Below are positions 17,852 through 39,386 of a DNA stretch of 64,000 nt, one piece after another. The stretch lies in contig JAZDEY010000037.1 of assembly GCA_043808325.1 (NCBI GenBank), positions 1 through 64,000 of the forward strand. Reading direction: 5' to 3'. Numbering within the stretch: position 1 is the stretch's first letter; each line of letters begins with the position of its first letter. The DNA is from JAZDEY01 sp043808325 [NCBI: Candidatus Eiseniibacteriota bacterium]. Its GTDB lineage: Bacteria > Arandabacterota > Arandabacteria > Arandabacterales. Made by a program: the position numbers and the translations under genes. Under the pieces are notes generated by a model, which had not been told where the DNA came from, did not search any database, and saw only the letters and a list, made by a program, of their open reading frames with translations.

Positions 17852-18254
17852 AATGGTCCTCACTCAGATCCGCCGTGTCTCTTCGGCTCCAGTACGTATC
17901 CGCTCTGCTGTCGAACTTGAGATCCAGGAAGTCTTTGCCGGCAAGCCGTGCCAGCAGACCGAGCGGGGTGACCACGGCATAGAACAGAATGATCAGGATC
18001 ACCCGGGTCATCACCCAACCCATGAGGTCTGCGACCTTCATCCATCCCTTGTGCAACGGACCCAGCAGAACCGGTCGAGCGAGTCCCAGCAGGATCAACG
18101 CCGCGGAGACGACGAAAGAATAAGGATAGACCCACTTGCCCCGCCAAAGGAGTAACCCGCCGAGGACGCCAAACGCAATACCTACCGTCAAGCCGAATTT
18201 TCGCAGCTCTCTCTTCCTGCTGGTTGGCCTATTGTCTGACTCGCTGCTCATCAA
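17835..18254 (-). CDS. SxtJ-like membrane protein
   Basis: A 139-residue protein: basic N-terminus (SRKRELRKFG), three to four membrane helices (about residues 22-38, 46-62, 80-102), and an acidic, aromatic tail with RADTYWSRRD. This matches the SxtJ family, named from saxitoxin clusters and found broadly beside carbamoyltransferases. The family has no established activity. It is transcribed between the methyltransferase and the SGNH hydrolase, overlapping the latter by 17 nt. Confidence 0.8.
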   Translation of the reverse strand: MMSSESDNRPTSRKRELRKFGLTVGIAFGVLGGLLLWRGKWVYPYSFVVSAALILLGLARPVLLGPLHKGWMKVADLMGWVMTRVILIILFYAVVTPLGLLARLAGKDFLDLKFDSRADTYWSRRDTADLSEDHYERQY

Positions 18255-18282
18255 AGCCCCCGAATTAGATGATGGTAAGATA

Positions 18283-19308
18283 TCAGGCCCTTCGCCGGCC
18301 GATCATGACGAAGAAGCCGCCCTCCTTGCTTCCGGTGAACATAAGGTTACCCTGAACGAGCAGGTGATCGACCCAGCTGCCGCTCGGCTTCACTTGAAAC
18401 AGCTGCTCGTTTTGGGTGAATCTCTCAAAAGCCTTTGCCTGCGGTATGCTGCTTATGAAGTCGAATCCGGTCCTATCGAACCACCGGAGAACCTGTCCGA
18501 TCGTGTGTTTTGATTCATGGGGGTTCTTGTACTGGTCCTTGAACCAGGTCATTTTCCTGACATCGCCCACACTGACGTCTCTCAGGCGCGGGTCCAGGAA
18601 TTTCAACCTATCGTTGAGGAGATTGAACACAACCCGTCGGAAATCGGTTGTCAACCTGCCGTACGTGTTGTAAAGGCCGATAATCACGTACCCGCCTCTT
18701 TTCACAAGCTTTGCCAAGGACCGGAATCCGGCAAAAGGGTCGCCGGTGTGATGGAGGACGCCGTTGCAGATCACAAGATGAAAACTCTGCTCCCTGAAGA
18801 TCGGCCTGAAGAGGTTCATCTGGTAGAATCCGACCCTCTCAAGGCTGTTACTTCTCTGAAACTCATGGCCCAGCTTGAGTGAATTCAGGCACATGTCGGT
18901 GCCGAAGACAGTCCTGTGGGCAACACCCAGGAAGTTGCTGAGCTGGCCTGTTCCGCATCCGGCCTCGAGAACCCTGGTATTGAACGGGACCTGCTCGTTC
19001 AACAGACGCGCGAACACCCCTCTCTGAGCCTTCTGAACGAGATCCGATATGCTCTCAAACTCCTCATAGTTGGGGAAAGGGGTCTCCTCGTAGAAGGCCT
19101 TTATTCTCTCAGTCACGTCTTCTCTTGAGCCTTCCCACTGATTCGGCCAGAAGAGCAACGGTATCCCATTCTCGACCCCGAAAGCCGCGGCGCAGCCCCG
19201 GCAGACTATCCGGTCACCCTGAACGGCAAGATCCCCTCCACACCCGGGGCATGCAAAAACCTCGAGATTCTCCATCATGTGCTTCGGGATCGTCGTCTCA
19301 GCTGCCAT
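18283..19308 (-). CDS. Class I SAM-dependent methyltransferase with N-terminal zinc-ribbon
   Basis: A 341-residue protein. A Trm112-like zinc ribbon (CPGC at 20-23, CRGC at 36-39) precedes a linker and a Rossmann methyltransferase domain with motif I VLEAGCGTGQ (about 112-121), the acidic loop GTDMC and LVICNGVLHHTGDP. ATG 19308 is the likely start: AGGAG lies 10 nt upstream and the carbamoyltransferase stop 13 nt upstream; the frame starting at 19353 overlaps that gene. Context suggests methylation of a polysaccharide sugar or carbamoylated intermediate. The substrate is not determinable from sequence. Confidence 0.82.
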   Translation of the reverse strand: MAAETTIPKHMMENLEVFACPGCGGDLAVQGDRIVCRGCAAAFGVENGIPLLFWPNQWEGSREDVTERIKAFYEETPFPNYEEFESISDLVQKAQRGVFARLLNEQVPFNTRVLEAGCGTGQLSNFLGVAHRTVFGTDMCLNSLKLGHEFQRSNSLERVGFYQMNLFRPIFREQSFHLVICNGVLHHTGDPFAGFRSLAKLVKRGGYVIIGLYNTYGRLTTDFRRVVFNLLNDRLKFLDPRLRDVSVGDVRKMTWFKDQYKNPHESKHTIGQVLRWFDRTGFDFISSIPQAKAFERFTQNEQLFQVKPSGSWVDHLLVQGNLMFTGSKEGGFFVMIGRRRA

Positions 19309-19321
19309 CGCGAGTCCGCTC

Positions 19322-21139
19322 CTAGTCCAGCTCGAACTGCCGGGTCCACTCAACGTCGCCTTCCAAGGGCTTCTGCTGCTTCTTGTCTATCAGATAATTC
19401 CCCATCAGCAGATAATCCATATTGGTGCGCATGAAACAGAGGTAGGCATCTTCCGGCGTGCACACTATGGGTTCTCCACGAACGTTGAACGAAGTGTTGA
19501 TGATCACCGGGCAGCCATATTTCTCATCGAACCTCGATATCATTTTGTGATACAGAGGATTGTGTTCGTAATTGACCGTCTGGATCCGAGCCGAATGGTC
19601 CACGTGAGTGACCGCGGGAATGCTTGATCGCACCACTTTCAGCTTGTCGAGCCCCGTCCGCTTGCGATCTTCCTCCGACGATTCCTTGCGGAACTCCTTC
19701 CTTACGGGCGCTACCAGGAGCATATAGGGGCTCTCACGATCTATTTCGAAATAGTCGGACACCCTCTCCTGGGTTACCGAAGGGGCGAACGGTCGGAAAC
19801 TCTCTCGGAACTTTATCTTCAGGTTCATCGTTTCCTGCATCTTAGGCGACCTGGCGTCTCCGATGATGGACCGGCTCCCCAGGGCCCTCGGGCCGAACTC
19901 CATCCGTCCTTGAAACCACCCGACCACGTTCTCGCCGGCGATCAGATCGGCAACTCTGTCGGCGATGTCTTCATCGGGAACCAGGGTATATGGGATCTTG
20001 TTGCGCTCCAGGTAGTCCTTGATGTACGCACTGTCGAATTCCGGCCCGAGATAGGAGCCCTGCTGGAAGTCTTTCCTACCATCAGCGACTCTGCCGTTAT
20101 TTAGATACTGATACCAAACAAGCAGCGCGGCGCCCACGGCGCCACCAGCATCGCCGGCAGCAGGCTGTATCCAGATATTCTCGAAAGGCCCCTCGCGCAG
20201 TATCCGTCCGTTGCCCACGCAATTCAAGGCCACTCCGCCAGCGAGGCAGAGGTGCTTCTGTCCAGTCTCCTTATGCAGATGCCGTACCATGCGAAGCATG
20301 ATTTCTTCGGTCACCTCTTGCATGGACCTGGCCACATCCATGTGCCGCTGGGTCAAAGGCGACTCCGGGCCCCGGGGGGGCCCTCCGAACAGCCGATCGA
20401 ATTTCGCATTCGTCATGGTGAGTCCCGCACCATAGTCGAAGTACTTCATATTGACCTTGAAGGACCCATCTTCCTTAAGATCAATCAGCTCTCGCAGGAT
20501 CAAGTCCGTGCACGCGGGCTCGCCGTACGGTGCCAGTCCCATCATTTTGTACTCGCCCGAATTGACCCTGAACCCGGTGTAGTAGGTGAAAGCAGAATAG
20601 AGCAGGCCCAAGGAATGCGGAAAACATATTTCCGCCAGAATGCGGACTTTGTTATCCTTTCCGATGCCGTAAGTCGTGGTCGGCCATTCACCCACCCCGT
20701 CTATCGTCAGGAAGGCAGCCTGCTGAAACGGCGAGGGGAAGAACGCCGACGCCGCATGGGATTCGTGGTGTTCCGGGAAGAGAATCTTACCCTCGTAGCC
20801 GAGTTGGGACCTGATCAGTTCCTTTATCCATAGCTTTTGCTTTATCCACATAGGGATGGCCTTCATGAATGAGCGTATCCCCACGGGTGCATACGCCAGA
20901 TAGGTTTCCAGTATGCGCTCGAACTTGAGGAAGGGCTTATCGTAGAAAGCCACAAAATCCAGATCCTTCCCCTCCAATCCGGAGCTCTGCAAACAGAAGC
21001 GAATAGCATTCTCGGGAAATGCAGAATCATGCTTCTTGCGAGTGAATCGCTCTTCCTGAGCAGCAGACACTATCTTGCCGTCTTGTACCAGGCAGGCTGC
21101 ACTGTCATGGTAGAACGCTGAGATCCCCAGAATGTTCAT
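19322..21139 (-). CDS. Carbamoyltransferase (NodU/TobZ family)
   Basis: A 605-residue O-carbamoyltransferase. The N-terminal Kae1-like ASKHA domain starts MNILGISAFYHDSAA and contains the metal-binding HHESHAA (H124, H125, H128) and LTIDGVGEW; it makes carbamoyl-AMP from carbamoyl phosphate and ATP. The C-terminal YrdC-like carbamoyltransfer domain includes GRMEFGPRALGSRSI and NTSFNVRGEPIV. Length is standard for the family. In an exopolysaccharide island it most likely carbamoylates a sugar hydroxyl. The gene has a 5' UTR of about 410 nt with a structured leader and a terminator. Confidence 0.93.
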   Translation of the reverse strand: MNILGISAFYHDSAACLVQDGKIVSAAQEERFTRKKHDSAFPENAIRFCLQSSGLEGKDLDFVAFYDKPFLKFERILETYLAYAPVGIRSFMKAIPMWIKQKLWIKELIRSQLGYEGKILFPEHHESHAASAFFPSPFQQAAFLTIDGVGEWPTTTYGIGKDNKVRILAEICFPHSLGLLYSAFTYYTGFRVNSGEYKMMGLAPYGEPACTDLILRELIDLKEDGSFKVNMKYFDYGAGLTMTNAKFDRLFGGPPRGPESPLTQRHMDVARSMQEVTEEIMLRMVRHLHKETGQKHLCLAGGVALNCVGNGRILREGPFENIWIQPAAGDAGGAVGAALLVWYQYLNNGRVADGRKDFQQGSYLGPEFDSAYIKDYLERNKIPYTLVPDEDIADRVADLIAGENVVGWFQGRMEFGPRALGSRSIIGDARSPKMQETMNLKIKFRESFRPFAPSVTQERVSDYFEIDRESPYMLLVAPVRKEFRKESSEEDRKRTGLDKLKVVRSSIPAVTHVDHSARIQTVNYEHNPLYHKMISRFDEKYGCPVIINTSFNVRGEPIVCTPEDAYLCFMRTNMDYLLMGNYLIDKKQQKPLEGDVEWTRQFELD

Positions 21140-21375
21140 ATAACCTCTTCTTCAATGGTGCCTTACCGGCATTATCGGCAGATCGCGGCAGTCTATTGAG
21201 ATGCCAGTTCCCAGCAATGTCGCATCGCTCGGCCGCCAATCATCTCGACGGGTGTAACCTGCCAAAAACCTGTCGGCAAGCATAATCAAACCTTCGCCCG
21301 AAGTCAAACACGTCTCCATCCGAGAAGAACGGCTCAGTGATCGACCGCAGCCGGCGCCAACCTAACCCCAACCGG

Positions 21376-21415
21376 CCAAAAAAGAGCGGGAAAGAGCCAA
21401 TCGCCTCTTCCCGCT
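21376..21415 (-). terminator. Intrinsic terminator closing leader A
   Basis: On the minus strand AGCGGGAAGAG pairs across an 8-nt loop with CTCTTTCCCGCT (one bulged base), followed by CTTTTTTGG. It lies about 240 nt before the carbamoyltransferase start, so transcription from the leader promoter must read through it to express the operon. Confidence 0.85.
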
Positions 21416-21549
21416 GTATGCTCTTCTATCGTGGACCATCCGCAATGCCACAGGATACCTGCCCTCAAAAGGCTCCAAAGATGCCCTTGGGATCTTGGCG
21501 TTCCCATAGCAATCTTACTCTGGCGACTGCTCCCTTCTTTTCCATCTAC
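21376..21549 (-). ncRNA. Candidate structured leader RNA, copy A
   Basis: About 174 nt run from the promoter at 21556-21584 to an intrinsic terminator. The block AAAGAAGGGAG (21540-21530) lies 15 nt after the -10, as in copy B near 49850. TGCTATGGGA (21511-21502) pairs with TCCTGTGGCA (21455-21446), and inside it is a local hairpin, AGATCCC with GGGCATCT. The equivalent stem in copy B is conserved through base changes. The remaining 236 nt between the terminator and the carbamoyltransferase start (21140-21375) show no gene. It could be a cis-acting leader or a separate small RNA; no known riboswitch class fits by eye. Confidence 0.6.
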
Positions 21550-21555
21550 CCCTGA

Positions 21556-21584
21556 AGTATAGCACACAACTTGTGCTAAGGCAA
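21556..21584 (-). promoter_or_regulatory. Sigma-70 promoter A with dyad operator in the spacer
   Basis: Minus strand TTGCCT, a 17-nt spacer, TATACT. The spacer and first bases of the -10 form a perfect 7-bp inverted repeat, TAGCACA-AGTTG-TGTGCTA (21578-21560). The promoter before the wza operon (49866-49894) has the same layout. A repressor sitting between -35 and -10 would occlude RNA polymerase. Confidence 0.75.
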
Positions 21585-21659
21585 GCTGTTGCGCCGTTCT
21601 AGGATTCGGCTCTTGACCAAGTCGTCTCGAGGGAAAGCAAGGTGCCACGGGGAGCCCCG

Positions 21660-23183
21660 TCACCCCGACCGGGCGGAATCGCTCCGCGCCACCAACTGCC
21701 TCGCTCGGACCAGGATCCGGCGTGCCTCTCCATAGACTTTGTCCCTCTCCTCGACCGATATGATCCACGTTTTGCGGATGCAGATGTACACGATCAGGCC
21801 CACGATCGGAACCGCCAGAAGAGGCGGCATCAGCAAGACAAAGGCCAGCAGGCACGTGACCACCGTTCGCTTGGTCACGGGGAGCCCGAACCTGTGGCAC
21901 AAGGCGACAACGATACACCACATCAGAAAGTAAGACACCATTGTGGCGACTGCAGCTCCGACCATGCCCAGGCGCGGAATCAGCAGGAGGTTGAGAATGA
22001 TGGTAGCCGGCATTGCAATTGAGAACGCTATCGCGGAAACATACGTCTTCTCAATCAGGGGCGGATAGACACCAAACAACCAAACCAGTGTCGTGTAAAG
22101 GTAGAAGACTACCAAGAACGGCAGCACTCTTGCGCCCGGAGCGTAGTCGGCGCCCAGCACCACCGTTATGAACCACTTCCCGAGCACCACCAGAACCAGG
22201 CCTATCACAAGCAGGATGATCGCAGTAACCCTCAGGGCACCGTCCAGATCCTTCAGGGCCTTCTCCCTTTGACCCATCTCCCAGGTTGCGCTCAGGTGGG
22301 GGTAAACTACATTGCAGATCGCGAGTCCGACCGCAGACATGCTCTCGCTCAGGTTGACCGTGGCCGAATAGATCCCCTGATCCGACGTGTTCATCAGATG
22401 CTGAAGGCTGAACCTGTCGACATACTGAAAGATCTGAGCGAGGATCGGGGTGACCGCAAACCAGACTGTGAACCTCAGCAGACGCCGATAGAATGCGGTC
22501 TCTACTATCGCTTCGGGCACCGGCTCCACGGACCTCGCGTACCGCAGCAGTAGGGGGAGAAAAATCACCACAGCGCCAAAAGCCGAGATCACAAAACCAA
22601 GAATCCCCATGGCCGCCGACCGGGATACCACCACCAACGCAATCCCTGCAACCGCATAGATGGCAACCTGGCCGGATTCGGCCAGGCGGCCGGCTCGAAA
22701 GAGCTTCAGTCCCATAAATGTACTGGTCAGGTTTCGCAGCAGAAGGAACGCCGGTATACCCATGGCGCTAACGATAATAACGTCAGTGTGTGACGCGTTT
22801 CCGTAAATCAGTCTTGAGAAGAAAGACGGTCTGACCAGTACTACTGCGGTCAGCAGCACCGACAGGGCAATGGTAAGGACGTAGGTCTTCCTAAGGTAGG
22901 ATCGAAGTCCCCCCCTCATCGCGTAACGAGGGGCATACCTCATGAACGCTGACGGAACACCGAGGCTCGCGATCATACCCAGCAGGGGGACAAGGAAGAG
23001 GCCCAGCGTATAGATTCCGTACTCAGTGGTCCCGAGCAGTCGCGCAAAGACTATTCCCCTTGCGAACGAGACCACCCTATCGATAAACACCAGGAAAAGG
23101 ACCAAACCGATAGAGGCCGCCATCCGGTCCTTTGACAGGAACCAGCCTTGGAGTCCCTTGCTTTCCTCTGTGGAGGGCTGCAT
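21660..23183 (-). CDS. Wzx-like polysaccharide flippase
   Basis: A 507-residue integral membrane protein with about 14 predicted helices, of the MOP/polysaccharide-synthase superfamily. The N-terminal region has FARLLGTTEYGIYTLGLF, a typical Wzx/MATE helix 1-2 signature. It should flip undecaprenyl-PP-linked oligosaccharides to the periplasm for the Wzy-like polymerase at 43741-45228. It is monocistronic. ATG 23183 lies only 9 nt after a good -10, giving an almost leaderless mRNA; the internal ATG 23123, preceded by AAAGGA, is an alternative start. Confidence 0.88.
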   Translation of the reverse strand: MQPSTEESKGLQGWFLSKDRMAASIGLVLFLVFIDRVVSFARGIVFARLLGTTEYGIYTLGLFLVPLLGMIASLGVPSAFMRYAPRYAMRGGLRSYLRKTYVLTIALSVLLTAVVLVRPSFFSRLIYGNASHTDVIIVSAMGIPAFLLLRNLTSTFMGLKLFRAGRLAESGQVAIYAVAGIALVVVSRSAAMGILGFVISAFGAVVIFLPLLLRYARSVEPVPEAIVETAFYRRLLRFTVWFAVTPILAQIFQYVDRFSLQHLMNTSDQGIYSATVNLSESMSAVGLAICNVVYPHLSATWEMGQREKALKDLDGALRVTAIILLVIGLVLVVLGKWFITVVLGADYAPGARVLPFLVVFYLYTTLVWLFGVYPPLIEKTYVSAIAFSIAMPATIILNLLLIPRLGMVGAAVATMVSYFLMWCIVVALCHRFGLPVTKRTVVTCLLAFVLLMPPLLAVPIVGLIVYICIRKTWIISVEERDKVYGEARRILVRARQLVARSDSARSG

Positions 23184-23472
23184 AGATAGAGGATACTATT
23201 GATCGAAGGCGGAGGCTGTCAACATCATTCCGGCGCTTCGCGGAAATAGAACGGGGCTGCGGGAACGAGGAGGGCGAGGGTGGTGCCCGCGCCGCAGACC
23301 TTACTGCATCGAACTCGGGGCGCGCTTCGATCCTCGGGATCATCGGGCTTTACATCCGTCCCCCCCGTGTGCTACCCTTCACCTCTGGCTGGCAAGCGTG
23401 CAGTCTGCCGCGGCCCGATCGCGGCAGCGGCACGAGGCAGCGCTTCCGGGCGGGCTCGCAAGAAGGTATCGG
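23184..23472. other. Divergent intergenic region, flippase / GT4 operon
   Basis: It holds the leftward promoter at 23193-23222. Toward the rightward GT4 gene I see a Shine-Dalgarno (AAGAAGG, 6 nt before ATG 23473) but no convincing -35/-10 pair. The frame beginning at 23398 extends the GT4 by 25 basic, low-complexity residues and looks non-coding. Confidence 0.5.
23193..23222 (-). promoter_or_regulatory. Sigma-70 promoter for the flippase gene
   Basis: Minus strand TTGACA (23222-23217), an 18-nt spacer, TAGTAT (23198-23193). The flippase ATG follows 9 nt after the -10, so the predicted transcript has a 5' UTR of 0-3 nt unless the internal ATG at 23123 is used. Confidence 0.65.
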
Positions 23473-24657
23473 ATGGCAAAGCGGCAAATCGAAGCAAGCG
23501 GCAGGAAGATCAGAGTCTGCCTCGTGATTCCCAAACTGGAAATGGGTGGAGCCGAGGTCGAGGTGCTATGCCTTATCAGGCACCTGGATAAGTCCCGCTT
23601 CGACGTATCCCTGCTATGCCTTGCCTCAGGAGACTGTGAAATGGAAAGAGAGGCCCGGCAGCACCTCGAGGCCTTTGCCACGGTTGGATTCCGCTCGAGG
23701 TACTTTCCGCTGTCCTTCGCCAAAATGGTCGCCTGGCTTCGTCGTGGCAGTTATGACGTCGTTCACTGCCATTTGCCTGTCGCCGATGTGATAGGCAGAT
23801 TTGCAGGCTGGTTTGCGGGGGTCCCCGTGCTCGTCACGACGGAGCACGGGAAATACATCTGTAAGGCCTGGTACCACCTGCTCTTGGATCGCTTGCTTGA
23901 TCCCCTGACCGGCATGCGAATATGCGTGAGTCAGGACATCCTGGACATTCGCGCCCGGCGCGAGGGCACCCCTCTATCCAAGCTAGTCCGAATCCCCAAC
24001 GGTATTGAGACCATGAAGTTTAGAAGCCCCGGGAGAGACCGGGCGTCGGTAATGGCTGAGTTCGGCTGGGCGGCTCCGGATCCTTTGGTTATATCAGTGG
24101 GACGGCTCGCGCCTGAAAAGAATCATGGAGTGCTCCTCGAAGCGATTGCTCGGATTGGCCCTAGGCACCCTCAGGCGAGATGCTTGCTGGTCGGCAGCGG
24201 GCCGTGCAGCGCCGAGATTCTCGCTGAGGTCGACTCCCTGGGCCTCACGGGCCGGGTGAAGTTGGCCGGCTCCCGCAATGATGTTCCCGATCTGCTCGCG
24301 GCCGCAGACATATTTGTTCTTGCATCACTCAAGGAGGGCCTGCCGGTCTCGTTGCTCGAAGCAATGGCCGCCGGAAAGGCGGTAGTGGTCACATCGGTTG
24401 GCGGCATGCCCGAGGTAATCACTGATGGCGACAATGGGCTGGTCGTCCCTTGCGGAGACACAGACGCGCTTGCGGATGCGATCGACAGACTCCTGCGGGA
24501 CGGAGATCTCCGAAAGGCCTTTGGGGAGGCCGTGAGAGCCAAGGCTGAGAAGGAATTCGACATCCAGCACGTGGCGGATGAGATCGGGCGTGTCTACACC
24601 GACCTTTACGGGAGAAAGCGGCGGGTCAGAGGGCTACGCGACAAGGAGGCCGAATGA
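23473..24657 (+). CDS. GT4 family glycosyltransferase
   Basis: A 394-residue GT-B retaining glycosyltransferase. ATG 23473 (MAKRQIEASG) has AAGAAGG 6 nt upstream. The N-terminal domain has the glycine-rich loop LEMGGAEVEV. The C-terminal domain has VGRLAPEKNHGVLLEA and the nucleotide-sugar motif EGLPVSLLEAMAAGKAVV (EX7E). It is first of a four-gene rightward set, overlapping the deacetylase by 4 nt. Its sugar is unknown. A role in surface polysaccharide or glycoconjugate assembly follows from the neighbours. Confidence 0.9.
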   Translation: MAKRQIEASGRKIRVCLVIPKLEMGGAEVEVLCLIRHLDKSRFDVSLLCLASGDCEMEREARQHLEAFATVGFRSRYFPLSFAKMVAWLRRGSYDVVHCHLPVADVIGRFAGWFAGVPVLVTTEHGKYICKAWYHLLLDRLLDPLTGMRICVSQDILDIRARREGTPLSKLVRIPNGIETMKFRSPGRDRASVMAEFGWAAPDPLVISVGRLAPEKNHGVLLEAIARIGPRHPQARCLLVGSGPCSAEILAEVDSLGLTGRVKLAGSRNDVPDLLAAADIFVLASLKEGLPVSLLEAMAAGKAVVVTSVGGMPEVITDGDNGLVVPCGDTDALADAIDRLLRDGDLRKAFGEAVRAKAEKEFDIQHVADEIGRVYTDLYGRKRRVRGLRDKEAE

Positions 24658-25847
24658 GCCCTCAAGGAATCCCGGTTGTGATGTACCACAGCGTGGGCAG
24701 AGATAGGCCCGATTGGATATGGAATTACTTGATTACGCCCGCCGACATCTTCGATGGCCAGATGCGGCTCCTCAAGGAGTCGGGGTGGACCGCAATCTCG
24801 CTGGATGTTCTCCATTCCCATATGTCCAAGGGCACGCCGGTCCCGGAGAGATCGGTGGTCCTGACCTTCGACGACGGATACGTGGATAATTGGGTGTACG
24901 CCTTCCCGATTCTCCGGAAATACGGCCATCATGCCGTCATCTGGGTCAGCACGGATTTTGTCGATCCTTGCAAGGAGCCCCGGCTGAACCTCGAGGATGT
25001 CTGGGCCGGTAAGATCGGCGAGGATCGGCTGGATCCGCGGGGTTACCTCTCTTGGGCCGAAATGGGAGAGATGGTACGAGGAGGCCTCATAGAGGTACAG
25101 AGCCATGCCAAGACACACACCTGGTACCCCAGCGGTCCTGAGATTATCGACTATCACAGACCCATAGGGATCGACGGCTATCAGTTCCCCCCCTGGCTCG
25201 CCTGGAATCGGTTCCCCGAAAGAAAGTACCAGAGCCTGAGTGTCAGGCTGGATCAGGAGATTCCATATGGGACACCGATCTACAGTCATCAGAAGTCTCT
25301 CGTAGTCCGTCGCTACGTCGAGGATGCGGACCTCACTGCCCACCTCACCCAGGAAGTGAGCACAAACGGCGGGTCGCAGTTCTTCGAGCGGCCTGGCTGG
25401 TGGGAAAAGCTGCGCGCGATTACGGATACCCCCCGGGCGGACAGATTCGAGACCGACGAAGAACATCAGGCCAGGGTGACGGATGAGTTGACCGAATCAC
25501 GGAGGCTGATTGAAGACAACCTCGGAACCGCGGTCAGTTTCCTGTGTTGGCCTGGAGGCGGCTATGACCCTGTGACGCTTAAAATCGCCCGTCAAGCGGG
25601 CTATCTGGCGACAACGACCCATTACGAGGATCGCAACAGACGAAACGTGCCTGGCCAGAATCCAAGTGAGATCAACCGAATGGGATGCGGGGCGCCTTGT
25701 GTATGGCGAGGACGAGTCTTCCGCCGGACCGACCCGGAGTTCTTTCTGGCGGGGCTGCAATATTTCGCCGGAGACCGAAAATCGTTGTGGAAACTGCGCC
25801 GGCTTAAGTTAAAATACCTGGCACGGTACACCTTGAGGGGACAGTGA
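24654..25847 (+). CDS. Polysaccharide deacetylase (NodB/CE4) with large insertion
   Basis: A 397-residue CE4 enzyme. The N-terminus VVMYHSVG and metal/base motif LTFDDGY (D73, D74) are followed by the metal-binding pair QSHAKTH (H151, H155). Then about 130 residues of unrecognised sequence intervene before the third motif CWPGGGYD near residue 290. That insertion is larger than in typical NodB domains and might bind a specific substrate. No signal peptide is visible, so it may act in the cytoplasm on a lipid-linked or nucleotide-linked substrate. It overlaps the GT4 stop in ATGA. Confidence 0.87.
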   Translation: MSPQGIPVVMYHSVGRDRPDWIWNYLITPADIFDGQMRLLKESGWTAISLDVLHSHMSKGTPVPERSVVLTFDDGYVDNWVYAFPILRKYGHHAVIWVSTDFVDPCKEPRLNLEDVWAGKIGEDRLDPRGYLSWAEMGEMVRGGLIEVQSHAKTHTWYPSGPEIIDYHRPIGIDGYQFPPWLAWNRFPERKYQSLSVRLDQEIPYGTPIYSHQKSLVVRRYVEDADLTAHLTQEVSTNGGSQFFERPGWWEKLRAITDTPRADRFETDEEHQARVTDELTESRRLIEDNLGTAVSFLCWPGGGYDPVTLKIARQAGYLATTTHYEDRNRRNVPGQNPSEINRMGCGAPCVWRGRVFRRTDPEFFLAGLQYFAGDRKSLWKLRRLKLKYLARYTLRGQ

Positions 25848-25871: not shown

Positions 25872-27593
25872 ATGTTGCCGCCTCTTTCACAGGCTTTGGT
25901 CAGGCACTTCATATATCCCATCTATCGTGGCCTGCGCCACGACCGGCTGACTGAGATCCGACGGGATGCCGAGAAACATCAGTGGCTATCTTCCGAGGAT
26001 CTCGAGACCCTTCAGTGGCGGCGGATAGCCGATTTTCTCGCGCAGATCACTACCCACGTACCCCACTACCACAATCTCTTCAAGGAAGCCGGGCTTGATC
26101 CTAGAGCGATACGCAGCCCAAAGGATTTCCTGAGTATCCCATTGCTTACAAAGCAAGACATTCGTCGTGTGGGAAGCCGCATCATCACCCAGGACCCTTC
26201 GAGGAGAGGCTTTAAGTCCAACACCAGCGGCTCGACCGGAGAGCCTCTTTTCTTCTACTGTGACGTGTCCGCAGGGCCCTTGAGGCGAGCATTCAGCGCG
26301 CTCGGCTATCGGTGGGCCGGAATCGACATCGGAGACCGGATTGCTTACATATCAGGTTTCAATCTCGACAAACCCTTGAAAGAGCGTTTGGCGGACGGGG
26401 TAAAGAACTACTTCAACAACAGGGCTTTCCTTTCATCCTTCAACATGTCCGAGGCAAGGATGCAGAAATACGCCGGGATGCTGGGGGCATTCAAGCCTGA
26501 CGCGATAGACGGCTATCCCTCAGCGGTTGCATTGTTTGCTGAGTACTGCAAGAGCCATCGGATTGCGGGGATCAAGCCGCGGGCGGTCTTTGCGAGCGGC
26601 GAGAAGGGTTATCCCCATCAGAGTCAGGCCATAAAGGAGATCTTCGATTGTCCTCTGTTCGATAGATACGGGAGTAACGAATTCTCCATAACTGCGCAGG
26701 AATGCGAGCAGCACAACGGGCTGCACCTCCTTAATCAATTCCTCTATGTGGAGGTAATCCACGAGAGCGGCCGCCCGGCCGGGAGCGGTGAGATCGGAGA
26801 GATCGTCGTGACTGACCTTTCCAATCTCTACATGCCGTTCCTGAGATATCGTACCGGCGATCTCGCGGTTCCTACGGTAAGGAAGTGCCCGTGTGGGAGA
26901 GGCTCTCCCCTTCTGGATCGAATCGAAGGCCGCACGTTCGACGTCGTGGTAACCGCGGACGGCAAGGCCGCAGGTGGTTATTTCTGGACCTATCTGTCGA
27001 GGTTCGTCCCCGGCATCAAGCAGTTCCAGATAGAACAGCGGGATCGGACCGGAGTGACCTTCAGGATAGTCCGTGGACCGGATTGGAAAGACCAGTATAC
27101 CCGAGATCTTGAGAGAAAAATCAAGGAGAACCTGGGCGAGGAATTCAAGACCAGCTTCGAGATGGTCGATGACATTCCGCTGACCCCAGCCGGTAAGTTC
27201 AGGTTCATCTGGTCCAAGATCGCCGAGCGGCTCGTGGTTAAGTCCAAGATCCATAAGGCGACCGTCACCGGATCGGCACCGGACGGGATCGATTGCATCG
27301 TCGTCGACGAGGAACTCCTCGAACTCAGCAATCTCGCGCCTTTCGAGAGGGTCCTGGTTGTCGACAACGTTAACGGCGCACGGGTCGAGACGTTCGTCGC
27401 AAAGGGCAAGAGAGGAAGCGGGGAGGTTGTGATATCGGGAGCCGGCGTACATCATATCGGCATTGGCGATGAGATAATCATCATGGCCTTTGCGTGGTCT
27501 GAGGAACCTGACAGCGTCTTTAAGAACATCCTCGTGGATGATAGGAATCGCTTCGTCCGTTACCTGGTCGAAGTTGCCGGCGAGAGGCTGTAG
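25872..27593 (+). CDS. CapK/PaaK-type adenylate-forming enzyme fused to a PanD-like domain
   Basis: A 573-residue fusion. Residues 1-450 are a phenylacetate-CoA-ligase/CapK-like enzyme: P-loop NTSGSTGEP (117-125), DRYGSNE (274-280), RYRTGDLA (335-342) and a catalytic-lysine loop PAGKFRF (K442). Residues about 453-573 resemble aspartate 1-decarboxylase (PanD): VKSKIHKATVT, NGARVETF, GKRGSGEVVISG. The PanD self-cleavage Gly-Ser is replaced by Asp-Cys (D474, C475), Tyr58 by F508 and Asn72 by S522, while positions equivalent to Lys9 (K459), His11 (H461), Arg54 (R504) and Thr57 (T507) remain. A PanD-like gene follows. Substrate and product are unknown. Confidence 0.85.
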   Translation: MLPPLSQALVRHFIYPIYRGLRHDRLTEIRRDAEKHQWLSSEDLETLQWRRIADFLAQITTHVPHYHNLFKEAGLDPRAIRSPKDFLSIPLLTKQDIRRVGSRIITQDPSRRGFKSNTSGSTGEPLFFYCDVSAGPLRRAFSALGYRWAGIDIGDRIAYISGFNLDKPLKERLADGVKNYFNNRAFLSSFNMSEARMQKYAGMLGAFKPDAIDGYPSAVALFAEYCKSHRIAGIKPRAVFASGEKGYPHQSQAIKEIFDCPLFDRYGSNEFSITAQECEQHNGLHLLNQFLYVEVIHESGRPAGSGEIGEIVVTDLSNLYMPFLRYRTGDLAVPTVRKCPCGRGSPLLDRIEGRTFDVVVTADGKAAGGYFWTYLSRFVPGIKQFQIEQRDRTGVTFRIVRGPDWKDQYTRDLERKIKENLGEEFKTSFEMVDDIPLTPAGKFRFIWSKIAERLVVKSKIHKATVTGSAPDGIDCIVVDEELLELSNLAPFERVLVVDNVNGARVETFVAKGKRGSGEVVISGAGVHHIGIGDEIIIMAFAWSEEPDSVFKNILVDDRNRFVRYLVEVAGERL

Positions 27594-27692
27594 GCAGTCC
27601 CGGATTGTTGTACGCGGAGCGCCGACTTGTGTGATATACTGAGTGTCGGAAGAATAGGTGCACCGCGTTCGGATGATCGAAAGTGAGTGGCA

Positions 27693-28052
27693 ATGAAACG
27701 ACTGCTTCTCAAGTCAATGATCCTGAAGGCCACGGTAACCCAGGCTGACCTACGTTATGTGGGCAGTATCACCATAGACCAGGATCTGATCGGCAAGAGC
27801 AATCTGAGTGAGAACGAGAACGTCCTGGTGGTCGATCGGACCAACGGAAACAGACTCCAGACCTATGTGATCAAGGGTGAACGCGGAAGCGGTACAATAT
27901 GCATGAACGGAGCCGCGGCACATCTGATCAACCAGGGCGACACGATTGACATAATGGCTTTCACTTGGTCCGGCACCAACCTCCAGCCTCTTTTCATCGC
28001 CGTTGACGAGCGCAACCGTTTCGTGCGCTATGTCGAGCCCGGCAATATCTGA
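27693..28052 (+). CDS. PanD-like pyruvoyl decarboxylase paralogue
   Basis: A 119-residue protein whose numbering from ATG 27693 matches aspartate 1-decarboxylase exactly: G24-S25 (YVGSITIDQDL), R54, T57, Y58 and N72 (MNGAAAH) are present, so it could self-process to a pyruvoyl enzyme. Lys9 and His11, conserved in true PanD, are Met9 and Leu11. Its C-terminus VDERNRFVRY is nearly identical to that of the preceding fusion protein, so the two arose by duplication. It lies 99 nt downstream of that gene. A plain pantothenate role is unlikely given the lost residues and the location. GTG 27687 is a possible alternative start. Confidence 0.85.
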   Translation: MKRLLLKSMILKATVTQADLRYVGSITIDQDLIGKSNLSENENVLVVDRTNGNRLQTYVIKGERGSGTICMNGAAAHLINQGDTIDIMAFTWSGTNLQPLFIAVDERNRFVRYVEPGNI

Positions 28053-28221: not shown

Positions 28222-28296
28222 TGGAGGCGGCATCCGGATTTGAACCGGAGTATAACGGTTTTGCAGACCGTCGCCTTACCGCTTGGCTATGCCGCC
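28222..28296 (-). tRNA. tRNA-Cys (anticodon GCA)
   Basis: A 75-nt tRNA with encoded CCA. Acceptor GGCGGCA pairs with TGCCGCC; the discriminator is T (U73, the cysteine identity base); the anticodon loop CTGCAAA contains GCA. It is 8 nt downstream of tRNA-Gly in the same orientation and is probably cut from one transcript. Confidence 0.97.
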
Positions 28297-28304
28297 CTAA
28301 CTAA

Positions 28305-28379
28305 TGGAGCGGGAAACGGGACTTGAACCCGCGACCATCACCTTGGCAAGGTGGCGCTCTACCACTGAGCTATTCCCGC
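28305..28379 (-). tRNA. tRNA-Gly (anticodon GCC)
   Basis: A 75-nt tRNA with encoded CCA. Acceptor GCGGGAA pairs with TTCCCGC; the D-arm contains AGCTCAGTGGTAGAGC; the anticodon loop TTGCCAA gives GCC; the T arm is CGGGTTCAAGTCCCG-like. Its 5' end abuts the GT2 stop codon directly. Confidence 0.97.
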
Positions 28380-31740: not shown

Positions 31741-32790
31741 CTAGCCAAGATGTTTGTAGAGGACCCTCCCCATGGCCTTGCCGATGAAGTTCGGCGAACG
31801 CTTGAGCGCGCTGGTCATCAAGCGGTACTTGGCCGACTCCTCAACGGTCGAGGCCGTGCCGCGAACCTCGGGATAGTAAAGATAGTTGAGGTCGACCTCA
31901 AATGCATTCCATCGTTCCTTGAAGTAGCGGAGCTCCTTGCTTGCCTTGGGGGTCCTCAAGAAATCGAAAGCCTTGTAGCCCCGGAGACATCCCATCTCAA
32001 TAGCTTTCCAGAAGAGTATCTGATGTACACGGTACGATCTGTAGGCCGCGGCCGAGCCGATGTACGCTGCACACAGGGTAGACCCGACCCCGAGAGTGAT
32101 CAGGCCCGCCACAGGCTTGCCCCGGTGAACCGCCACGTGGAGGTGTAGGTTCTGCGGCCAGAGATGTAGCCACAGGTTCCGGAAGAAGCTATAGGGTTGG
32201 GGCGGGACACCGTGCTTGAGCCTGAGGCTCGAGAAGAACGCGTAGAACTGTTTCAGGTCATTGAGGTCGGCCGCGTCCCTGACCTCAATCCCTTTCTTCG
32301 CTGCCTGCCTGACCTCGGTCCTCACGTTTCGGTCCTTGAAGTTCTCCCAGACCTTGGTCGGGTCGCTGTCCAGCTTGACAATCGACGTTATGAAGTAGCT
32401 GACCCCGGTGAACCTTGGGTCCTCGATCGGATTGATATCGGCCTGAGTCCGAATTTCGAGCGCCTTGACCCCGAGCTCGGCCGAGAGATCCAGTGCCCTC
32501 CCGAGCAGCCCAGCCACACATTCGGGCGCCCCAATGGGTCCGCACGTGTTCGCGAAGGGAAGCGATACCAGCCGTCTTCCCGTAAGCCAGCTTCTTACGT
32601 GCATCAGCGGAAGCAGGGCTCTGAGGTCGCCCCCTTCCAGGCAGCCCAGGTACATGGGCTGGTACCCGTAGGTAGAGATGATCGCATCTCTCCATGCAGG
32701 CGTGTGATAGATTGTAGCCTGCCCGCAGCCCCCGACAAAACGTTGGTAAGCTTGCTCGTGCCTGCTATCAAGGACGCTGACGTCTCCCAT
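31741..32790 (-). CDS. FemAB-like GNAT-fold aminoacyl/acyl transferase
   Basis: A 349-residue protein with two GNAT-like halves in the manner of FemX/FemAB and the FemAB-related proteins of exopolysaccharide clusters. Recognisable pieces are the N-terminal YHTPAWRDAI, the central FKDRNVRTEVRQAAKKGIEV and the C-terminal FDFLRTPKASKELRYFKERW. FemAB enzymes use aminoacyl-tRNA to extend peptidoglycan bridges; the EPS-associated branch has no proven substrate. It ends a three-gene operon (deacetylase, GT4, FemAB-like) with 4-5 nt gaps. Confidence 0.82.
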   Translation of the reverse strand: MGDVSVLDSRHEQAYQRFVGGCGQATIYHTPAWRDAIISTYGYQPMYLGCLEGGDLRALLPLMHVRSWLTGRRLVSLPFANTCGPIGAPECVAGLLGRALDLSAELGVKALEIRTQADINPIEDPRFTGVSYFITSIVKLDSDPTKVWENFKDRNVRTEVRQAAKKGIEVRDAADLNDLKQFYAFFSSLRLKHGVPPQPYSFFRNLWLHLWPQNLHLHVAVHRGKPVAGLITLGVGSTLCAAYIGSAAAYRSYRVHQILFWKAIEMGCLRGYKAFDFLRTPKASKELRYFKERWNAFEVDLNYLYYPEVRGTASTVEESAKYRLMTSALKRSPNFIGKAMGRVLYKHLG

Positions 32791-32795
32791 GGTAG

Positions 32796-34022
32796 TTATG
32801 CGCTAAGCTCCTCGTAGACCTGCATGATGTTGCGGTAGTGGGTCGCGGCGTCAAACTCGGTCTCGATCCGCTTTCTTGCGTTCTCGCCCATCTCCCTCAA
32901 CAGAGCCCGGTTCTCGGCAAGACAAGCCATCTTCTTGGCCAGGTCGGCCGGATCGCCCGGTTCGACCAGTAACCCCGTCCCCCCATTCTCCACCATCTCG
33001 GGGAGTCCTCCGATCCTCGATGCAATCACCGGCTTGCCCACGGCAAATGCCTCGAGTACGGAGTACGGGAAGTTCTCCGGCCAGATCGACGGAATCACCA
33101 CAAACATCGCCCTGGAAACCAGATCCAGGATCTTGTCTCTTGCGACATGCCCTAGGAATTCGGCATTCTTGAGGCCCAGCTTAAGGGCCTGCCCCTCGAG
33201 GGCAGTACGGCAGGGGCCGTCGCCCGCAATCACCAATCTGACATCGGGCAAAGCCGCCGCGGCCTCAAGGAGCACCTCAATGCCTTTCTCGTCAGAGAGC
33301 CGGCCAAAGCATATCGCGTAGCCGTCATTATCATAGACGGGCCGATACCGTGATCCGTCAATGAAGTTGGGCAGCGCGCGTATTCGTGCCGCCGGCCGGC
33401 CGCATTCGACCAGCTTGTCCCTGGCAAACCGGCTAGGTGTAATGATCATGTCGAGCAGATCATCATAGCCCATCACTCTCATGAAATAGCCTTCCAGCGC
33501 GATGGCCGCGCTGCCCGCAAACGAACCACCCTTGCACCTCGCCATTGCAGCGTTGTAGTAGTTGCGGCCACGACACCGATCACACAAAGCTCCATGAGCG
33601 AACAGTACCGAACTCGGACAGATTAGGTCATAATCGTGAGCAGTCATCACCACCGGCTTGGCTCTCTTCTTCGGCTCCGGAAGAATCGAAAACGTAAGAT
33701 GGCGCCGGAAGTTCTGCAGGTGCACGATGTCGGGGCTGGTTGCGTCCAGGAGCGCAGCAAACTTCCTGCGAGCCTCGGATGAATAGAGACTCCGAGGGAA
33801 GGCTTTGACTCTCTCAAACAGACCTCCGGTCTCCGAGAGGTCTCGGTAGTCGATGTAGTCCACAAAGTACTTCTCGAACTCAGATGGGAAATTCTTGGGA
33901 TGTTTCATCGCAAAATGGATCACTTGGTGTCCCCGGGACCCAAGCAGCCTGGCAAGCTCAAAAGTGTACGTCGAGTCTCCGCCTCGCCAATGATGGTAGG
34001 TGTTCACCAGGCAGATCCGCAT
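32796..34022 (-). CDS. GT4 family glycosyltransferase
   Basis: A 408-residue GT-B enzyme. The N-terminal domain starts MRICLVNTYHHWRGGDSTY with the glycine-rich acceptor loop. The C-terminal donor domain has FGRLSDEKGIEVLLEA and NFPYSVLEAFAVGKPVIASRIGG (EX7E-type). A cluster of cysteines (CDRCRG) near residue 145, also seen in the related GT4 at 37177-38391, hints at a metal-binding insertion shared by this subfamily. It is 4 nt downstream of the deacetylase-like gene. Sugar specificity is unknown. Confidence 0.9.
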   Translation of the reverse strand: MRICLVNTYHHWRGGDSTYTFELARLLGSRGHQVIHFAMKHPKNFPSEFEKYFVDYIDYRDLSETGGLFERVKAFPRSLYSSEARRKFAALLDATSPDIVHLQNFRRHLTFSILPEPKKRAKPVVMTAHDYDLICPSSVLFAHGALCDRCRGRNYYNAAMARCKGGSFAGSAAIALEGYFMRVMGYDDLLDMIITPSRFARDKLVECGRPAARIRALPNFIDGSRYRPVYDNDGYAICFGRLSDEKGIEVLLEAAAALPDVRLVIAGDGPCRTALEGQALKLGLKNAEFLGHVARDKILDLVSRAMFVVIPSIWPENFPYSVLEAFAVGKPVIASRIGGLPEMVENGGTGLLVEPGDPADLAKKMACLAENRALLREMGENARKRIETEFDAATHYRNIMQVYEELSA

Positions 34023-34026
34023 TGAC

Positions 34027-35280
34027 TCAGTTCTCCTTGAACCGCCTGAGAAAATCCCCGAGCGTCAGGCAGTCGATATCGCCGGTTACCGCCAGAGCCG
34101 CCTCAAAGGGAGCCGGCCAAGTGCTCTGCACGAGGAGCGCATGATCGAGCTCCGCAATCGCCTTGGCCAGGTCGTGGAGGCTGCACCCAGGTTTCGCATA
34201 GATTGGATAGGATTTGCTATCCGCTGTTAGTTCAATGATATAGCCGCGTTCCTTAACCTTTACCCTTAAATCCAAGGGGCTATCGGGATGGAAACCGATC
34301 ACAGGCCTAAGCGGTGAGACAACCTGGGCCGGCAGCGTGATCCTGGCGCTTGTCCCCTTAAGAGGCTCCACCAAGCAAAGGCTGGATTTAAGCGGAGCTG
34401 CACTTGTTATGCGGTAGGCACTCCCACCACCTGAGACTTCCAGCTGGAGCGTCTGCCGCTCTCTCCACCACCTGGAGATCTCGCCCAGGGTTGCTATCCA
34501 GACACGCCCGCTGAGGGCAGCGGCCTTGAGGAGATTCCCGAGGGCCCGGTGAAGTATCAGAAGCCGTTCCGGGTGAAGCTGAACCGTGAAGAGATCTCCC
34601 CTTGCGCGACAGCACTCGAGGATCTCCTGCCAGACCCTGCCGATTGCCTCCGGCGAGAGCCCCATCCTATCGAGCAGAATCTCGTCATCAGGCAGGGACA
34701 CAGGGATCTCGACGAGGCGCCCCGTCAACCTGGGTGTGGATCTCTCCGCGGGATGCCTTGCAGGATTATAAAACGCAAGACCTCGTTCGAGGCCGTCCTT
34801 CTCGCGGGAACTGAGACGCTCAAGAAGGCCCCGAGGCTCCCAGTAGAACGGCATGTTGCTGTCATAATCGAAACCCGCCTTCTCCACGGCCGCGAGAGTC
34901 GCTGCATTGTACCTGAGATAAGGACTCCGGAAGCCCGTGTAAGCTATTCCGTGTTCCCGGAAGATGCGGCAGGCTGCCTCGATCTGCTCGGTCTGGATTT
35001 CGGGCCGCAGATTGGAAAGATCGTTGTGTACGAGCCCGTGCACACATAGTTCGGCACCCAGCGCCACAAGCCTCTTGCCGACATGCGGGTTCCGGGCCAG
35101 CACCCGCGCCGTTATGGGAAGTGAAGGCGCAGCACCATGTGCCGCGACCAGATCGTGATAAGCCACAAGGCGTCTCTCCATTCTGGCCGCGGTCAGGCCG
35201 AAGCGGGTACCGACCTGCCAGAGCCTCTCCAGCGAGTTGCCGATACCACGCGATTCCAGAACGAATTTCAGTCTATTCAA
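34027..35280 (-). CDS. Polysaccharide-deacetylase-like protein, apparently circularly permuted
   Basis: A 417-residue protein. The N-terminal 140 residues match a NodB barrel from its second element on: acceptor helix, HGLVH metal pair (H81, H85) and GFRSPYLRYN with the catalytic-type Arg (R118). The expected first motif (TFDDG-like) is missing from the N-terminus. The C-terminal 23 residues instead contain LAVTGDIDCLTLGDFLRRF, which reads like the first strand and Asp motif (D401, D403). A beta-rich linker of about 110 residues separates the halves. This looks like a circular permutation; activity is unproven. Confidence 0.7.
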   Translation of the reverse strand: MNRLKFVLESRGIGNSLERLWQVGTRFGLTAARMERRLVAYHDLVAAHGAAPSLPITARVLARNPHVGKRLVALGAELCVHGLVHNDLSNLRPEIQTEQIEAACRIFREHGIAYTGFRSPYLRYNAATLAAVEKAGFDYDSNMPFYWEPRGLLERLSSREKDGLERGLAFYNPARHPAERSTPRLTGRLVEIPVSLPDDEILLDRMGLSPEAIGRVWQEILECCRARGDLFTVQLHPERLLILHRALGNLLKAAALSGRVWIATLGEISRWWRERQTLQLEVSGGGSAYRITSAAPLKSSLCLVEPLKGTSARITLPAQVVSPLRPVIGFHPDSPLDLRVKVKERGYIIELTADSKSYPIYAKPGCSLHDLAKAIAELDHALLVQSTWPAPFEAALAVTGDIDCLTLGDFLRRFKEN

Positions 35281-35300
35281 TCGATCACCAGCCTAAGGCG

Positions 35301-35329
35301 TTGACACCGGGCTCCGACCGCTTCATAAT
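35301..35329 (+). promoter_or_regulatory. Sigma-70 promoter for a probable leaderless mRNA
   Basis: TTGACA (35301-35306), a 17-nt spacer and CATAAT (35324-35329). The expected start, 6-8 nt further on, coincides with the ATG at 35337. No Shine-Dalgarno precedes any of the three in-frame ATGs (35328, 35337, 35343). Confidence 0.7.
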
Positions 35330-35336
35330 GGTCCCG

Positions 35337-36014: not shown

Positions 36015-36094
36015 TGCCTCCGGGCCGGTCATCGTCATGCTTAACACCCTCTCAGGTACCTGATCAAGCCACACAGTCCCACCGATGCTCCGTG

Positions 36095-39371: not shown

Positions 39372-39386
39372 AGACCGTCCTCCTCT

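What the first reader, a model, noticed from the sequence alone, without database searches (positions are those of the whole stretch)
25872..28052. Adenylating enzyme fused to a PanD-like domain, followed by a second PanD-like gene, in a polysaccharide locus
Seen: a CapK/PaaK-type ligase with intact AMP-binding motifs carries a C-terminal domain aligning end to end with aspartate 1-decarboxylase, and the next gene encodes a free-standing paralogue sharing the unusual C-terminus VDxRNRFVRY. Both follow a GT4 and a deacetylase on one strand. Known: CapK/PaaK enzymes adenylate carboxylates; PanD makes beta-alanine through a pyruvoyl group. I know of no described system joining them. Inference: the pair activates a carboxylate and makes or presents an amine, for example to amidate a uronic acid or lipid-carrier intermediate.
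Basis: partly seen in the sequence, partly recalled or inferred. Interest (0 to 1): 0.92.

Follow-up and report, generated by a model that had tools for sequence, protein, structure and literature searches.

The report
Split decarboxylase tethered to adenylating enzyme
Two neighbouring genes each carry a broken copy of the vitamin-B5 enzyme aspartate decarboxylase, broken in opposite halves of the active site so that only together could they make one working enzyme, and one of them is welded to an ATP-using ligase.

Summary
A PaaK/CapK-like adenylating protein (25872-27593) carries a complete C-terminal PanD domain and is followed by a free PanD (27693-28052). The C-terminal motif VDxRNRFVRY is not special: some ordinary PanDs have it.

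The main point was missed. The two PanD units are degenerate in complementary ways. The free unit keeps the pyruvoyl side (Y22, G24, S25, T57, Y58, N72) but lacks K9 and H11. The fused unit keeps K9, H11 and R54 but lacks Y22, G24, Y58 and N72. In solved PanDs, K9 and R54 reach the site from the neighbouring subunit. The pattern holds in 23 free and 24 fused copies (one fused copy masked at R54-Y58) from the window and 23 genomes of one phylum (Candidatus Krumholzibacteriota). It is absent from 34 ordinary PanD rows (33 distinct).

I infer an alternating heterotetramer with composite sites that makes beta-alanine, tethered to a ligase in a GT4-deacetylase-ligase/PanD-PanD cassette. The ligase probably attaches beta-alanine to the amine freed by the deacetylase; that step is unproven. 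AlphaFold2 did not resolve the pair's arrangement (pTM 0.48). New variant of a known kind.

The parts
23398..24657 (+). GT4 glycosyltransferase, first gene of the cassette (similarity to orthologues starts near residue 34, so the real start may be downstream)
   Evidence: Pfam Glycos_transf_1 E 4.3e-44; best NCBIfam match TIGR03088 at 214.5 of 409 bits, below cut-off; a similar gene directly upstream of the deacetylase in 8 of 11 loci with enough sequence, window included
24654..25847 (+). NodB-type polysaccharide deacetylase; TFDDG and HxxxH metal motifs intact; no signal peptide seen by eye
   Evidence: Pfam Polysacc_deac_1 E 6.6e-20; motifs in 14 of 14 cassette deacetylases; directly upstream of the fusion in 14 of 22 loci, window included
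25872..27593 (+). Fusion protein, 573 aa: PaaK/CapK-like adenylating ligase (residues 1 to about 450) plus C-terminal PanD-like domain
   Evidence: motifs TSGSTGEP, YGSNE, YRTGDL, CxCGRG and the C-terminal GK are present
27228..27590 (+). Fused PanD-like domain (residues 453-573; E. coli PanD number + 450). Keeps K459 (K9), H461 (H11), R504 (R54), T507 (T57); has G472, D474, C475, F508, S522 in place of Y22, G24, S25, Y58, N72
   Evidence: Pfam Asp_decarbox E 5.7e-26; residue table; PanD fold
27693..28052 (+). Free PanD-like protein, 119 aa from the ATG. Keeps Y22, G24, S25, R54, T57, Y58, N72, G73, A74, A75; has M9, L11, D86 in place of K9, H11, I86
   Evidence: Pfam Asp_decarbox E 3.5e-38, NCBIfam panD over cut-off

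Best explanation
The pair is one aspartate alpha-decarboxylase split over two paralogous subunits. The free subunit cleaves itself at G24-S25 and carries the pyruvoyl group with T57, Y58 and N72. The PanD domain of the fusion protein probably cannot do this, but it supplies K9, H11 and R54 across the subunit interface to bind aspartate. An alternating tetramer (fused, free, fused, free) would have two live sites and two dead ones, and the degenerate positions all fall in the dead ones (except I86, whose side is unknown). The enzyme makes beta-alanine, probably also the supply for pantothenate in most of these bacteria. Because one subunit is fused to an adenylating enzyme, beta-alanine is made next to an acyl-AMP-forming site. 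In the conserved cassette the likely sequence is: GT4 makes an N-acetylhexosaminide, the deacetylase frees its amine, the ligase adenylates beta-alanine and N-acylates that amine. SHOWN (sequence): fusion, adjacency, reciprocal residue loss, two single clades inherited together, cassette. INFERRED, about 0.7: heteromeric composite site with aspartate decarboxylase activity. INFERRED, about 0.35: beta-alanine is the acid the ligase activates and the deacetylated amine is the acceptor. The confidence below is for the composite decarboxylase.
For: Residues: 34 of 34 ordinary PanD rows (33 distinct) have K9, H11, Y22, G24, S25, T57, Y58, N72. Free, 23 of 23: M9, L or M at 11, with Y22, G24, S25, R54, T57, Y58, N72, A74, A75 all kept (G73 in 22). 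Fused, 24: K9 24, H11 24, R54 23 of 23 readable, D24 24, Y22 0, Y58 0 of 23 readable, N72 0; position 25 is C in 20, S in 2, G in 2. K9* and R54* come from the other subunit of the dimer while Pyr25, T57 and Y58 are given without that mark (PMC3314653, passages; Arg54* also PMC6969166, passages). Both groups are single clades (100/100 and 100/99); their distances correlate over the window and 20 genomes (r 0.76, 0 of 5000 permutations as high). Beta-alanine source: PanC is present in 22 of the 23 genomes with the pair; the PLP decarboxylase family PF00282 is over cut-off in 44 of 47 genomes without any PanD hit but in 5 of 23 with the pair. Cassette: deacetylase directly upstream in 14 of 22 loci, window included; deacetylase orthologues of 50% identity or more in 15 of 23 genomes with the pair and 1 of 57 others, that one (G029) with a cassette broken off near a contig end. 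Where no such deacetylase is found the ligase tends to erode: G001 and G020 have lost its C-terminal part, and G031, G033, G034 have Q for E in YGSxE and a changed P-loop, yet the PanD pattern is intact in all five.
Against: No complex was shown: AlphaFold2 on the linked pair gave good single domains but pTM 0.48, so their arrangement is not predicted. That H11 acts in trans is inferred from its closeness to K9. I86, listed as strictly conserved in PanD, is Asp in 23 of 23 free proteins; its effect is unknown and the substrate may have changed. The fused domain may not be wholly unable to self-process: C25 occurs in 20 of 24 and a processed S25C mutant is in the PDB; T57 is kept in 20 of 23 readable; and Y22 and Y58 are among residues whose mutation did not stop activation in E. 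coli (PMC3975893, PMC4410942, passages). What D24 does to processing is untested. PF00282 is present in 5 genomes with the pair, 47 of 80 genomes of the phylum show no PanD at all, and other beta-alanine routes were not searched. The genome counts are not phylogenetically independent and come from genomes of untold completeness. Seven of 22 loci have neither deacetylase nor GT4 beside the fusion and one has the GT4 only; G035 keeps all ligase motifs without a close deacetylase. No substrate of the ligase is known.
Confidence: 0.7

Rival explanations
1. Prozyme-like: the free protein is the whole catalyst with an altered site (M9, L11, D86) and possibly another substrate; the fused domain is a dead activator or tether that contributes no catalytic residue.
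For: Trypanosome AdoMetDC, also pyruvoyl-dependent, is activated by a dead paralogue by conformational change (PMC5201418, abstract). I86 to Asp in 23 of 23 free proteins suggests a changed site.
Against: It does not explain why K9, H11 and R54 are invariant in the fused domains while Y22, Y58, N72 and A75 drift there.
Confidence: 0.2
2. One reading: the ligase adenylates a carboxylate of a sugar (uronic acid) or carrier, and the PanD product is the amine that attacks it.
For: A CapK-like ligase beside sugar genes is seen elsewhere: the top plasmid match lies among glycosyltransferases and an epimerase.
Against: No uronate-making gene was recognised in the conserved cassette; the conserved partner is a deacetylase, which makes an amine, not an acid.
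Confidence: 0.12
3. Plain beta-alanine supply: the pair is only the clade's PanD for pantothenate, and the ligase fusion has a use unrelated to beta-alanine.
For: PanC nearly everywhere, PF00282 mostly missing with the pair; PanD pattern kept in G001 and G020 where the ligase has decayed.
Against: The fusion is kept in 24 of 24 copies, and the E of YGSxE and the C-terminal GK in 20 of 23 and 22 of 24; unfused paralogues of the ligase exist, so fusion is not needed for ligase function alone.
Confidence: 0.25
4. Both PanD units are catalytically dead and serve as a double-psi-barrel scaffold or sensor.
For: Neither has a full residue set by itself.
Against: The free unit keeps S25, G24 and T57 for self-processing in 23 of 23 copies; the fused unit keeps K9, H11 and R54 in every readable copy.
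Confidence: 0.06

Closest known systems
Aspartate 1-decarboxylase PanD (Pfam PF02261, TIGR00223)
   Same: Fold, length, G24-S25 cleavage site and pyruvoyl-side residues in the free unit; active site at a subunit interface
   Different: Known PanD is one gene, a homotetramer; here two paralogues with complementary losses, one fused to a ligase
PaaK/CapK-like AMP-forming ligases (4r1l PaaK; NCBIfam DVU_1553, FlxY, BagE/FevW)
   Same: About 450 residues with the AMP-binding motifs and the C-terminal lysine
   Different: Below the cut-off of each NCBIfam model matched; carries a PanD domain; acid and acceptor unknown
Trypanosomatid deoxyhypusine synthase DHSc/DHSp
   Same: Two paralogues, one lacking catalytic residues, form a heterotetramer with two live and two dead sites (PMC7581365 passages; PMC3663545 passages)
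   Different: Different enzyme and kingdom; here the complementarity is read from sequence only and one partner is fused to another enzyme
Trypanosomatid AdoMetDC with prozyme
   Same: Pyruvoyl-dependent decarboxylase that needs a degenerate paralogue (PMC5201418 abstract)
   Different: There the paralogue acts allosterically; here it would supply active-site residues
Mycothiol (MshA/MshB/MshC) and Nod-factor (NodB/NodA) logic, recalled
   Same: Deacetylation of a sugar followed by re-acylation of the freed amine; in mycothiol with a glycosyltransferase and an ATP-using ligase
   Different: Ligase is of another family than MshC; product unknown; analogy from memory only

Membership tests
PanD (aspartate 1-decarboxylase) | Profile membership above curated cut-off | tested here: met
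   Free: TIGR00223 115.5 bits over 106. Fused: above the Pfam cut-off (86.9 over 25) but below TIGR00223 (75.4)
PanD (aspartate 1-decarboxylase) | Double-psi beta-barrel PanD fold | tested here: met
   Fused domain against 4crz: Z 20.9, rmsd 1.9, 121 aligned. The 40 best Foldseek matches of the linked model are PanD chains. The free half has the same order of strands and helices but its range is not given by either search
PanD (aspartate 1-decarboxylase) | Full set of strictly conserved catalytic residues in one chain | tested here: not met
   Free lacks K9, H11, I86; fused lacks Y22, G24, Y58, N72 in all readable copies and S25 in 22 of 24
PanD (aspartate 1-decarboxylase) | Self-cleavage and aspartate decarboxylation | not testable with these tools
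   Needs protein
PaaK/CapK-like adenylating ligase | AMP-binding motifs and C-terminal catalytic lysine | tested here: met
   Met in the window protein. In 24 aligned copies: YxTGD 24; GK 22 (not G001, G020); E of YGSxE 20 of 23 readable (Q in G031, G033, G034); P-loop (S/G)GSTG(E/A)P 16 of 22 readable
PaaK (phenylacetate-CoA ligase proper) | Above the TIGR02155 cut-off | tested here: not met
   74.4 against 646.3 bits
Heteromer of complementary degenerate paralogues | Losses in the two partners disjoint and sorted by side of the site | tested here: met
   Disjoint except I86 (D in all free; I in 10, G in 8, S in 6 fused); sides for K9, R54, Pyr25, T57, Y58 from PMC3314653, for H11, Y22, N72 inferred
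Heteromer of complementary degenerate paralogues | Physical complex | tested here: inconclusive
   AF2 of the linked pair: pLDDT 75.4, pTM 0.48

The most novel reading that the evidence does not exclude
A self-contained cytosolic pathway in Krumholzibacteriota makes beta-alanyl-aminoglycosides (a new small conjugate or glycolipid head group). Its key enzyme is a split-site PanD heterotetramer that hands beta-alanine directly to the adenylating domains fused to two of its four subunits: a decarboxylase-ligase channelling complex with a pyruvoyl cofactor, and a PanD with composite active sites, neither of which I found described.
Probability: 0.3. Interest if true: 0.9.

Novelty: new variant of a known kind. 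Interest (0 to 1): 0.77.

Why it matters
It would be a clean bacterial case of a homomeric vitamin-pathway enzyme split into two mutually dependent paralogues with composite active sites, preserved across a clade, with one half recruited as a docking domain for another enzyme. It gives a sharp, cheap test (does only the pair rescue an E. coli panD deletion?), a concrete lead for the unknown substrate of CapK-like ligases in sugar loci, and a warning for annotation: the free protein passes NCBIfam's panD cut-off although its substrate-binding lysine is gone.

Tried and rejected
Close relatives of the fusion by short peptide patterns: none in genome contigs or viral contigs. The motif VDxRNRFVRY as a marker of the system: rejected, as it also marks ordinary PanDs; three viral matches to it are random frames. 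Read-through or selenocysteine in PanDs flagged 'stops inside' in Acidobacteriota: the translated matches are PanDs with K9 and H11; the one stop printed inside a PanD match, in L123, lies at the C-terminal end. Fusions in other phyla: Latescibacterota 64 genomes, Acidobacteriota 297, Bacteroidota 395, Desulfobacterota 395, searched with the fused domain as query under E limits of 1e-8, 1e-15, 1e-22 and 1e-22, so weaker relatives would be missed. They gave 13, 80, 18 and 0 matches. Of these 111, 23 were read as DNA (4, 16, 3) and all 23 were unfused with K9 and H11; the other 88 were judged by open-frame length only, and some of those frames are long. One search had no positive control. Papers joining PanD with PaaK/CapK ligases: none; PanD with heterotetramer and paralogue terms: four papers listed, none by its title about such a pair. 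Full-length model of the fusion: poor overall (pLDDT 51, pTM 0.28); only its PanD part was used. For its ligase part the best listed match was 2-hydroxyisobutyryl-CoA ligase, Z 11.0 over 87 residues, not relied on.

How rows were chosen. Fused and free copies were told apart by frame length (over 250 aa = fused), with one 893-aa frame in L075 assigned to free by hand. Ordinary PanDs were picked from 34 loci with a text pattern that itself contains K-x-H and an NG motif; no locus failed the pattern, so none was dropped, but the pattern could have hidden exceptions. L010 and L109 are the same protein. G030 and G032 show only one whole partner: in G030 the contig ends just after the fusion, and in G032 the last 46 residues of the fusion lie at the contig end; both are counted among the 23 genomes. 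G029 is counted among those without the pair. L074 (G026) is masked by N at part of the fused domain and was left out of the tree and the Mantel test. L060, L071 and L079 were left out of the upstream count (contig ends). The window was the source of the queries; its place in the counts comes.
Full report
OBSERVATION. Residues 454-560 of the 573-aa protein match Pfam Asp_decarbox almost end to end (E 1.1e-24), and the 121-aa ORF matches at E 3.5e-38. The free one passes NCBIfam's panD cut-off and the fused one does not. The first 450 residues are PaaK/CapK-like: the best NCBIfam models are below cut-off, but a profile of 17 orthologues finds solved phenylacetate-CoA ligases (4r1l, E 1.7e-43) and, for the tail, solved PanDs. 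The predicted fused domain aligns to PanD chains (4crz: Z 20.9, rmsd 1.9, 121 residues; in the full-length model Z 20.4). The better start of the free gene is the ATG at 27693: (M/V)KR starts are conserved in 23 of 23.

THE SHARED C-TERMINUS IS ORDINARY. A scan of the genome collection for the degenerate motif gave 24 stretches. Translation showed one further fusion (L017, record title Candidatus Krumholzibacteriota) with a free partner beside it, four unfused PanDs (L010, L018, L022, L027), one PanD cut by the edge of its contig (L007), and otherwise no PanD.

A CONSERVED PAIR. The phylum of L017's genome was searched with PF02261: 80 genomes. Twenty-three have the fusion and/or the free partner (21 both; the other two are cut by contig ends), 10 have one ordinary PanD, 47 have no hit. 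The window's own genome is not held, so its membership of this phylum is inferred from its closest relatives: G028 at 69% (fused domain) and 80% (free) identity. Fused domains and free proteins are each one clade (100/100 and 100/99), apart from 34 ordinary PanD rows (98/75). Their distance matrices correlate (window and 20 genomes, r 0.76; 0 of 5000 permutations as high), as expected of an old duplication inherited together; shared descent alone would give that too.

RECIPROCAL DEGENERACY. This is the main result (E. coli numbering). PMC3314653 (passages) lists the strictly conserved residues of aspartate decarboxylases and marks K9 and R54 as coming from the other subunit; PMC6969166 (passages) also marks R54. 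Thirty-four of 34 ordinary rows (33 distinct) have K9, H11, Y22, G24, S25, T57, Y58 and N72. All 23 free proteins have M9 and L or M at 11 and keep Y22, G24, S25, R54, T57, Y58, N72, A74 and A75. All 24 fused domains keep K9 and H11, and R54 wherever readable (23), but have D24 in 24 of 24, no Y22, no N72, and no Y58 in 23 readable. Position 25 is C in 20, S in 2 and G in 2. T57, besides S25 the one nearby residue reported as required for self-processing (PMC3975893 and PMC4410942, passages), is kept in all free proteins, but also in 20 of 23 readable fused domains. PDB titles report S25C as processed and H11A as unprocessed; since PMC4410942 says that only T57 is required nearby, H11's role in processing is open. 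Each site type can be read: free-side pyruvoyl with fused-side K9/H11/R54 is complete; the opposite interface has lost groups on both faces; either homomer lacks one side. Hence the inferred alternating heterotetramer with two live sites. The trans placement of H11 and the side of Y22 and N72 are my inference. I86 does not fit neatly (D in all free; I, G or S in fused).

IS IT ACTIVE? Pantoate ligase PanC, which needs beta-alanine, is found in 76 of 80 genomes and in 22 of 23 with the pair. The PLP-dependent decarboxylase family PF00282, which contains known alternative beta-alanine makers (recalled), is over cut-off in 44 of 47 genomes without PanD, 6 of 10 with an ordinary PanD and 5 of 23 with the pair (Fisher 1.4e-9 for pair against none, not corrected for kinship). 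So in 18 of 23 genomes the pair is the only PF02261 or PF00282 candidate for making beta-alanine (G018 has a second fusion copy). Other routes were not searched.

CASSETTE. tblastn of the window's genes on the loci, window added: the deacetylase is directly upstream of the fusion in 14 of 22 loci with enough sequence; the GT4 is upstream of the deacetylase in 8 of 11; an M50-CBS protease (query from L059) follows the free PanD in 18 of 22 (not in the window, where tRNA-Cys and tRNA-Gly follow). The TFDDG and HxxxH motifs are present in 14 of 14 deacetylases. Deacetylase orthologues of 50% identity or more occur in 15 of 23 genomes with the pair and 1 of 57 others; that one, G029, has GT4, deacetylase and the first half of the ligase near a contig end. 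Unfused ligase paralogues at 50-55% identity occur in G001, G013 and G015; in G015 behind a deacetylase, in G001 near a GT4 and a more distant deacetylase. In G001 and G020 the fused ligase has lost its C-terminal part and P-loop residues; in G031, G033 and G034 it has Q for E in YGSxE and a changed P-loop. None of these five has a close deacetylase orthologue (G001 and G034 have one of 38-39%), and all five keep the PanD residues. So the decarboxylase half is kept without a sound ligase, and the ligase tends to erode where the deacetylase is gone. Against a tight link, G035 keeps the ligase motifs without a close deacetylase, and one genome with the deacetylase (G021) has a changed P-loop.

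HOW IT LIKELY WORKS. The composite decarboxylase makes beta-alanine beside the adenylating domain. Glycosyltransferase, deacetylase and acid-activating ligase together suggest N-acylation of a freed sugar amine, as in mycothiol or Nod-factor synthesis (recalled analogies). PaaK-like enzymes that join an activated acid to a small acceptor are known (BagE/FevW model matched at 9.8e-10; function recalled). Amino-acid-acylated sugars exist: N-seryl glucuronamide in P. gingivalis (PMC13086638, passages).

LIMITS. The full fusion model was poor outside the PanD domain. Genome completeness is not told. Other phyla were sampled: 64, 297, 395 and 395 genomes; 23 of 111 matches were read and none is a fusion. 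Paper searches found no description of such a pair; they cover open-licence PMC papers only.

Noticed in passing
L059 8629-9750 and the corresponding gene in 17 further loci: An M50 (site-2-protease-like) peptidase with CBS domains follows the free PanD on the same strand in 18 of 22 loci, but not in the window. A link to the pair is unexplained.
   Followed up: partly
80 genomes of the phylum of G001: PanD and the PLP decarboxylase family PF00282 tend to replace each other: 44 of 47 genomes without PanD have PF00282.
   Followed up: partly
L066 8498-10216 (G018): A second fusion copy in one genome without a free PanD beside it, with a GT4 directly upstream and a deacetylase some 3.7 kb away on the other strand.
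   Followed up: no
window 27693-28052, residue D86; fused residue D474: Asp replaces I86 in 23 of 23 free proteins and Asp replaces G24 in 24 of 24 fused domains: invariant new acidic residues, perhaps a rebuilt dead site.
   Followed up: no
window 16508-23183 and 31741-46740: The cassette sits as a plus-strand island among mostly minus-strand sugar genes: NodU-like carbamoyltransferase, a flippase-like protein, an XrtA-type FemAB-like protein and glycosyltransferases (matches below cut-off); a sugar transferase and chain-length-type genes from reading the translations (labels by eye).
   Followed up: no
window 28222-28379: tRNA-Cys and tRNA-Gly genes directly downstream on the opposite strand, where most other loci have the M50 gene.
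   Followed up: no
window 207-983: A small secreted-looking protein ends in a FlgD/T9SS-like sorting sequence (by eye).
   Followed up: no
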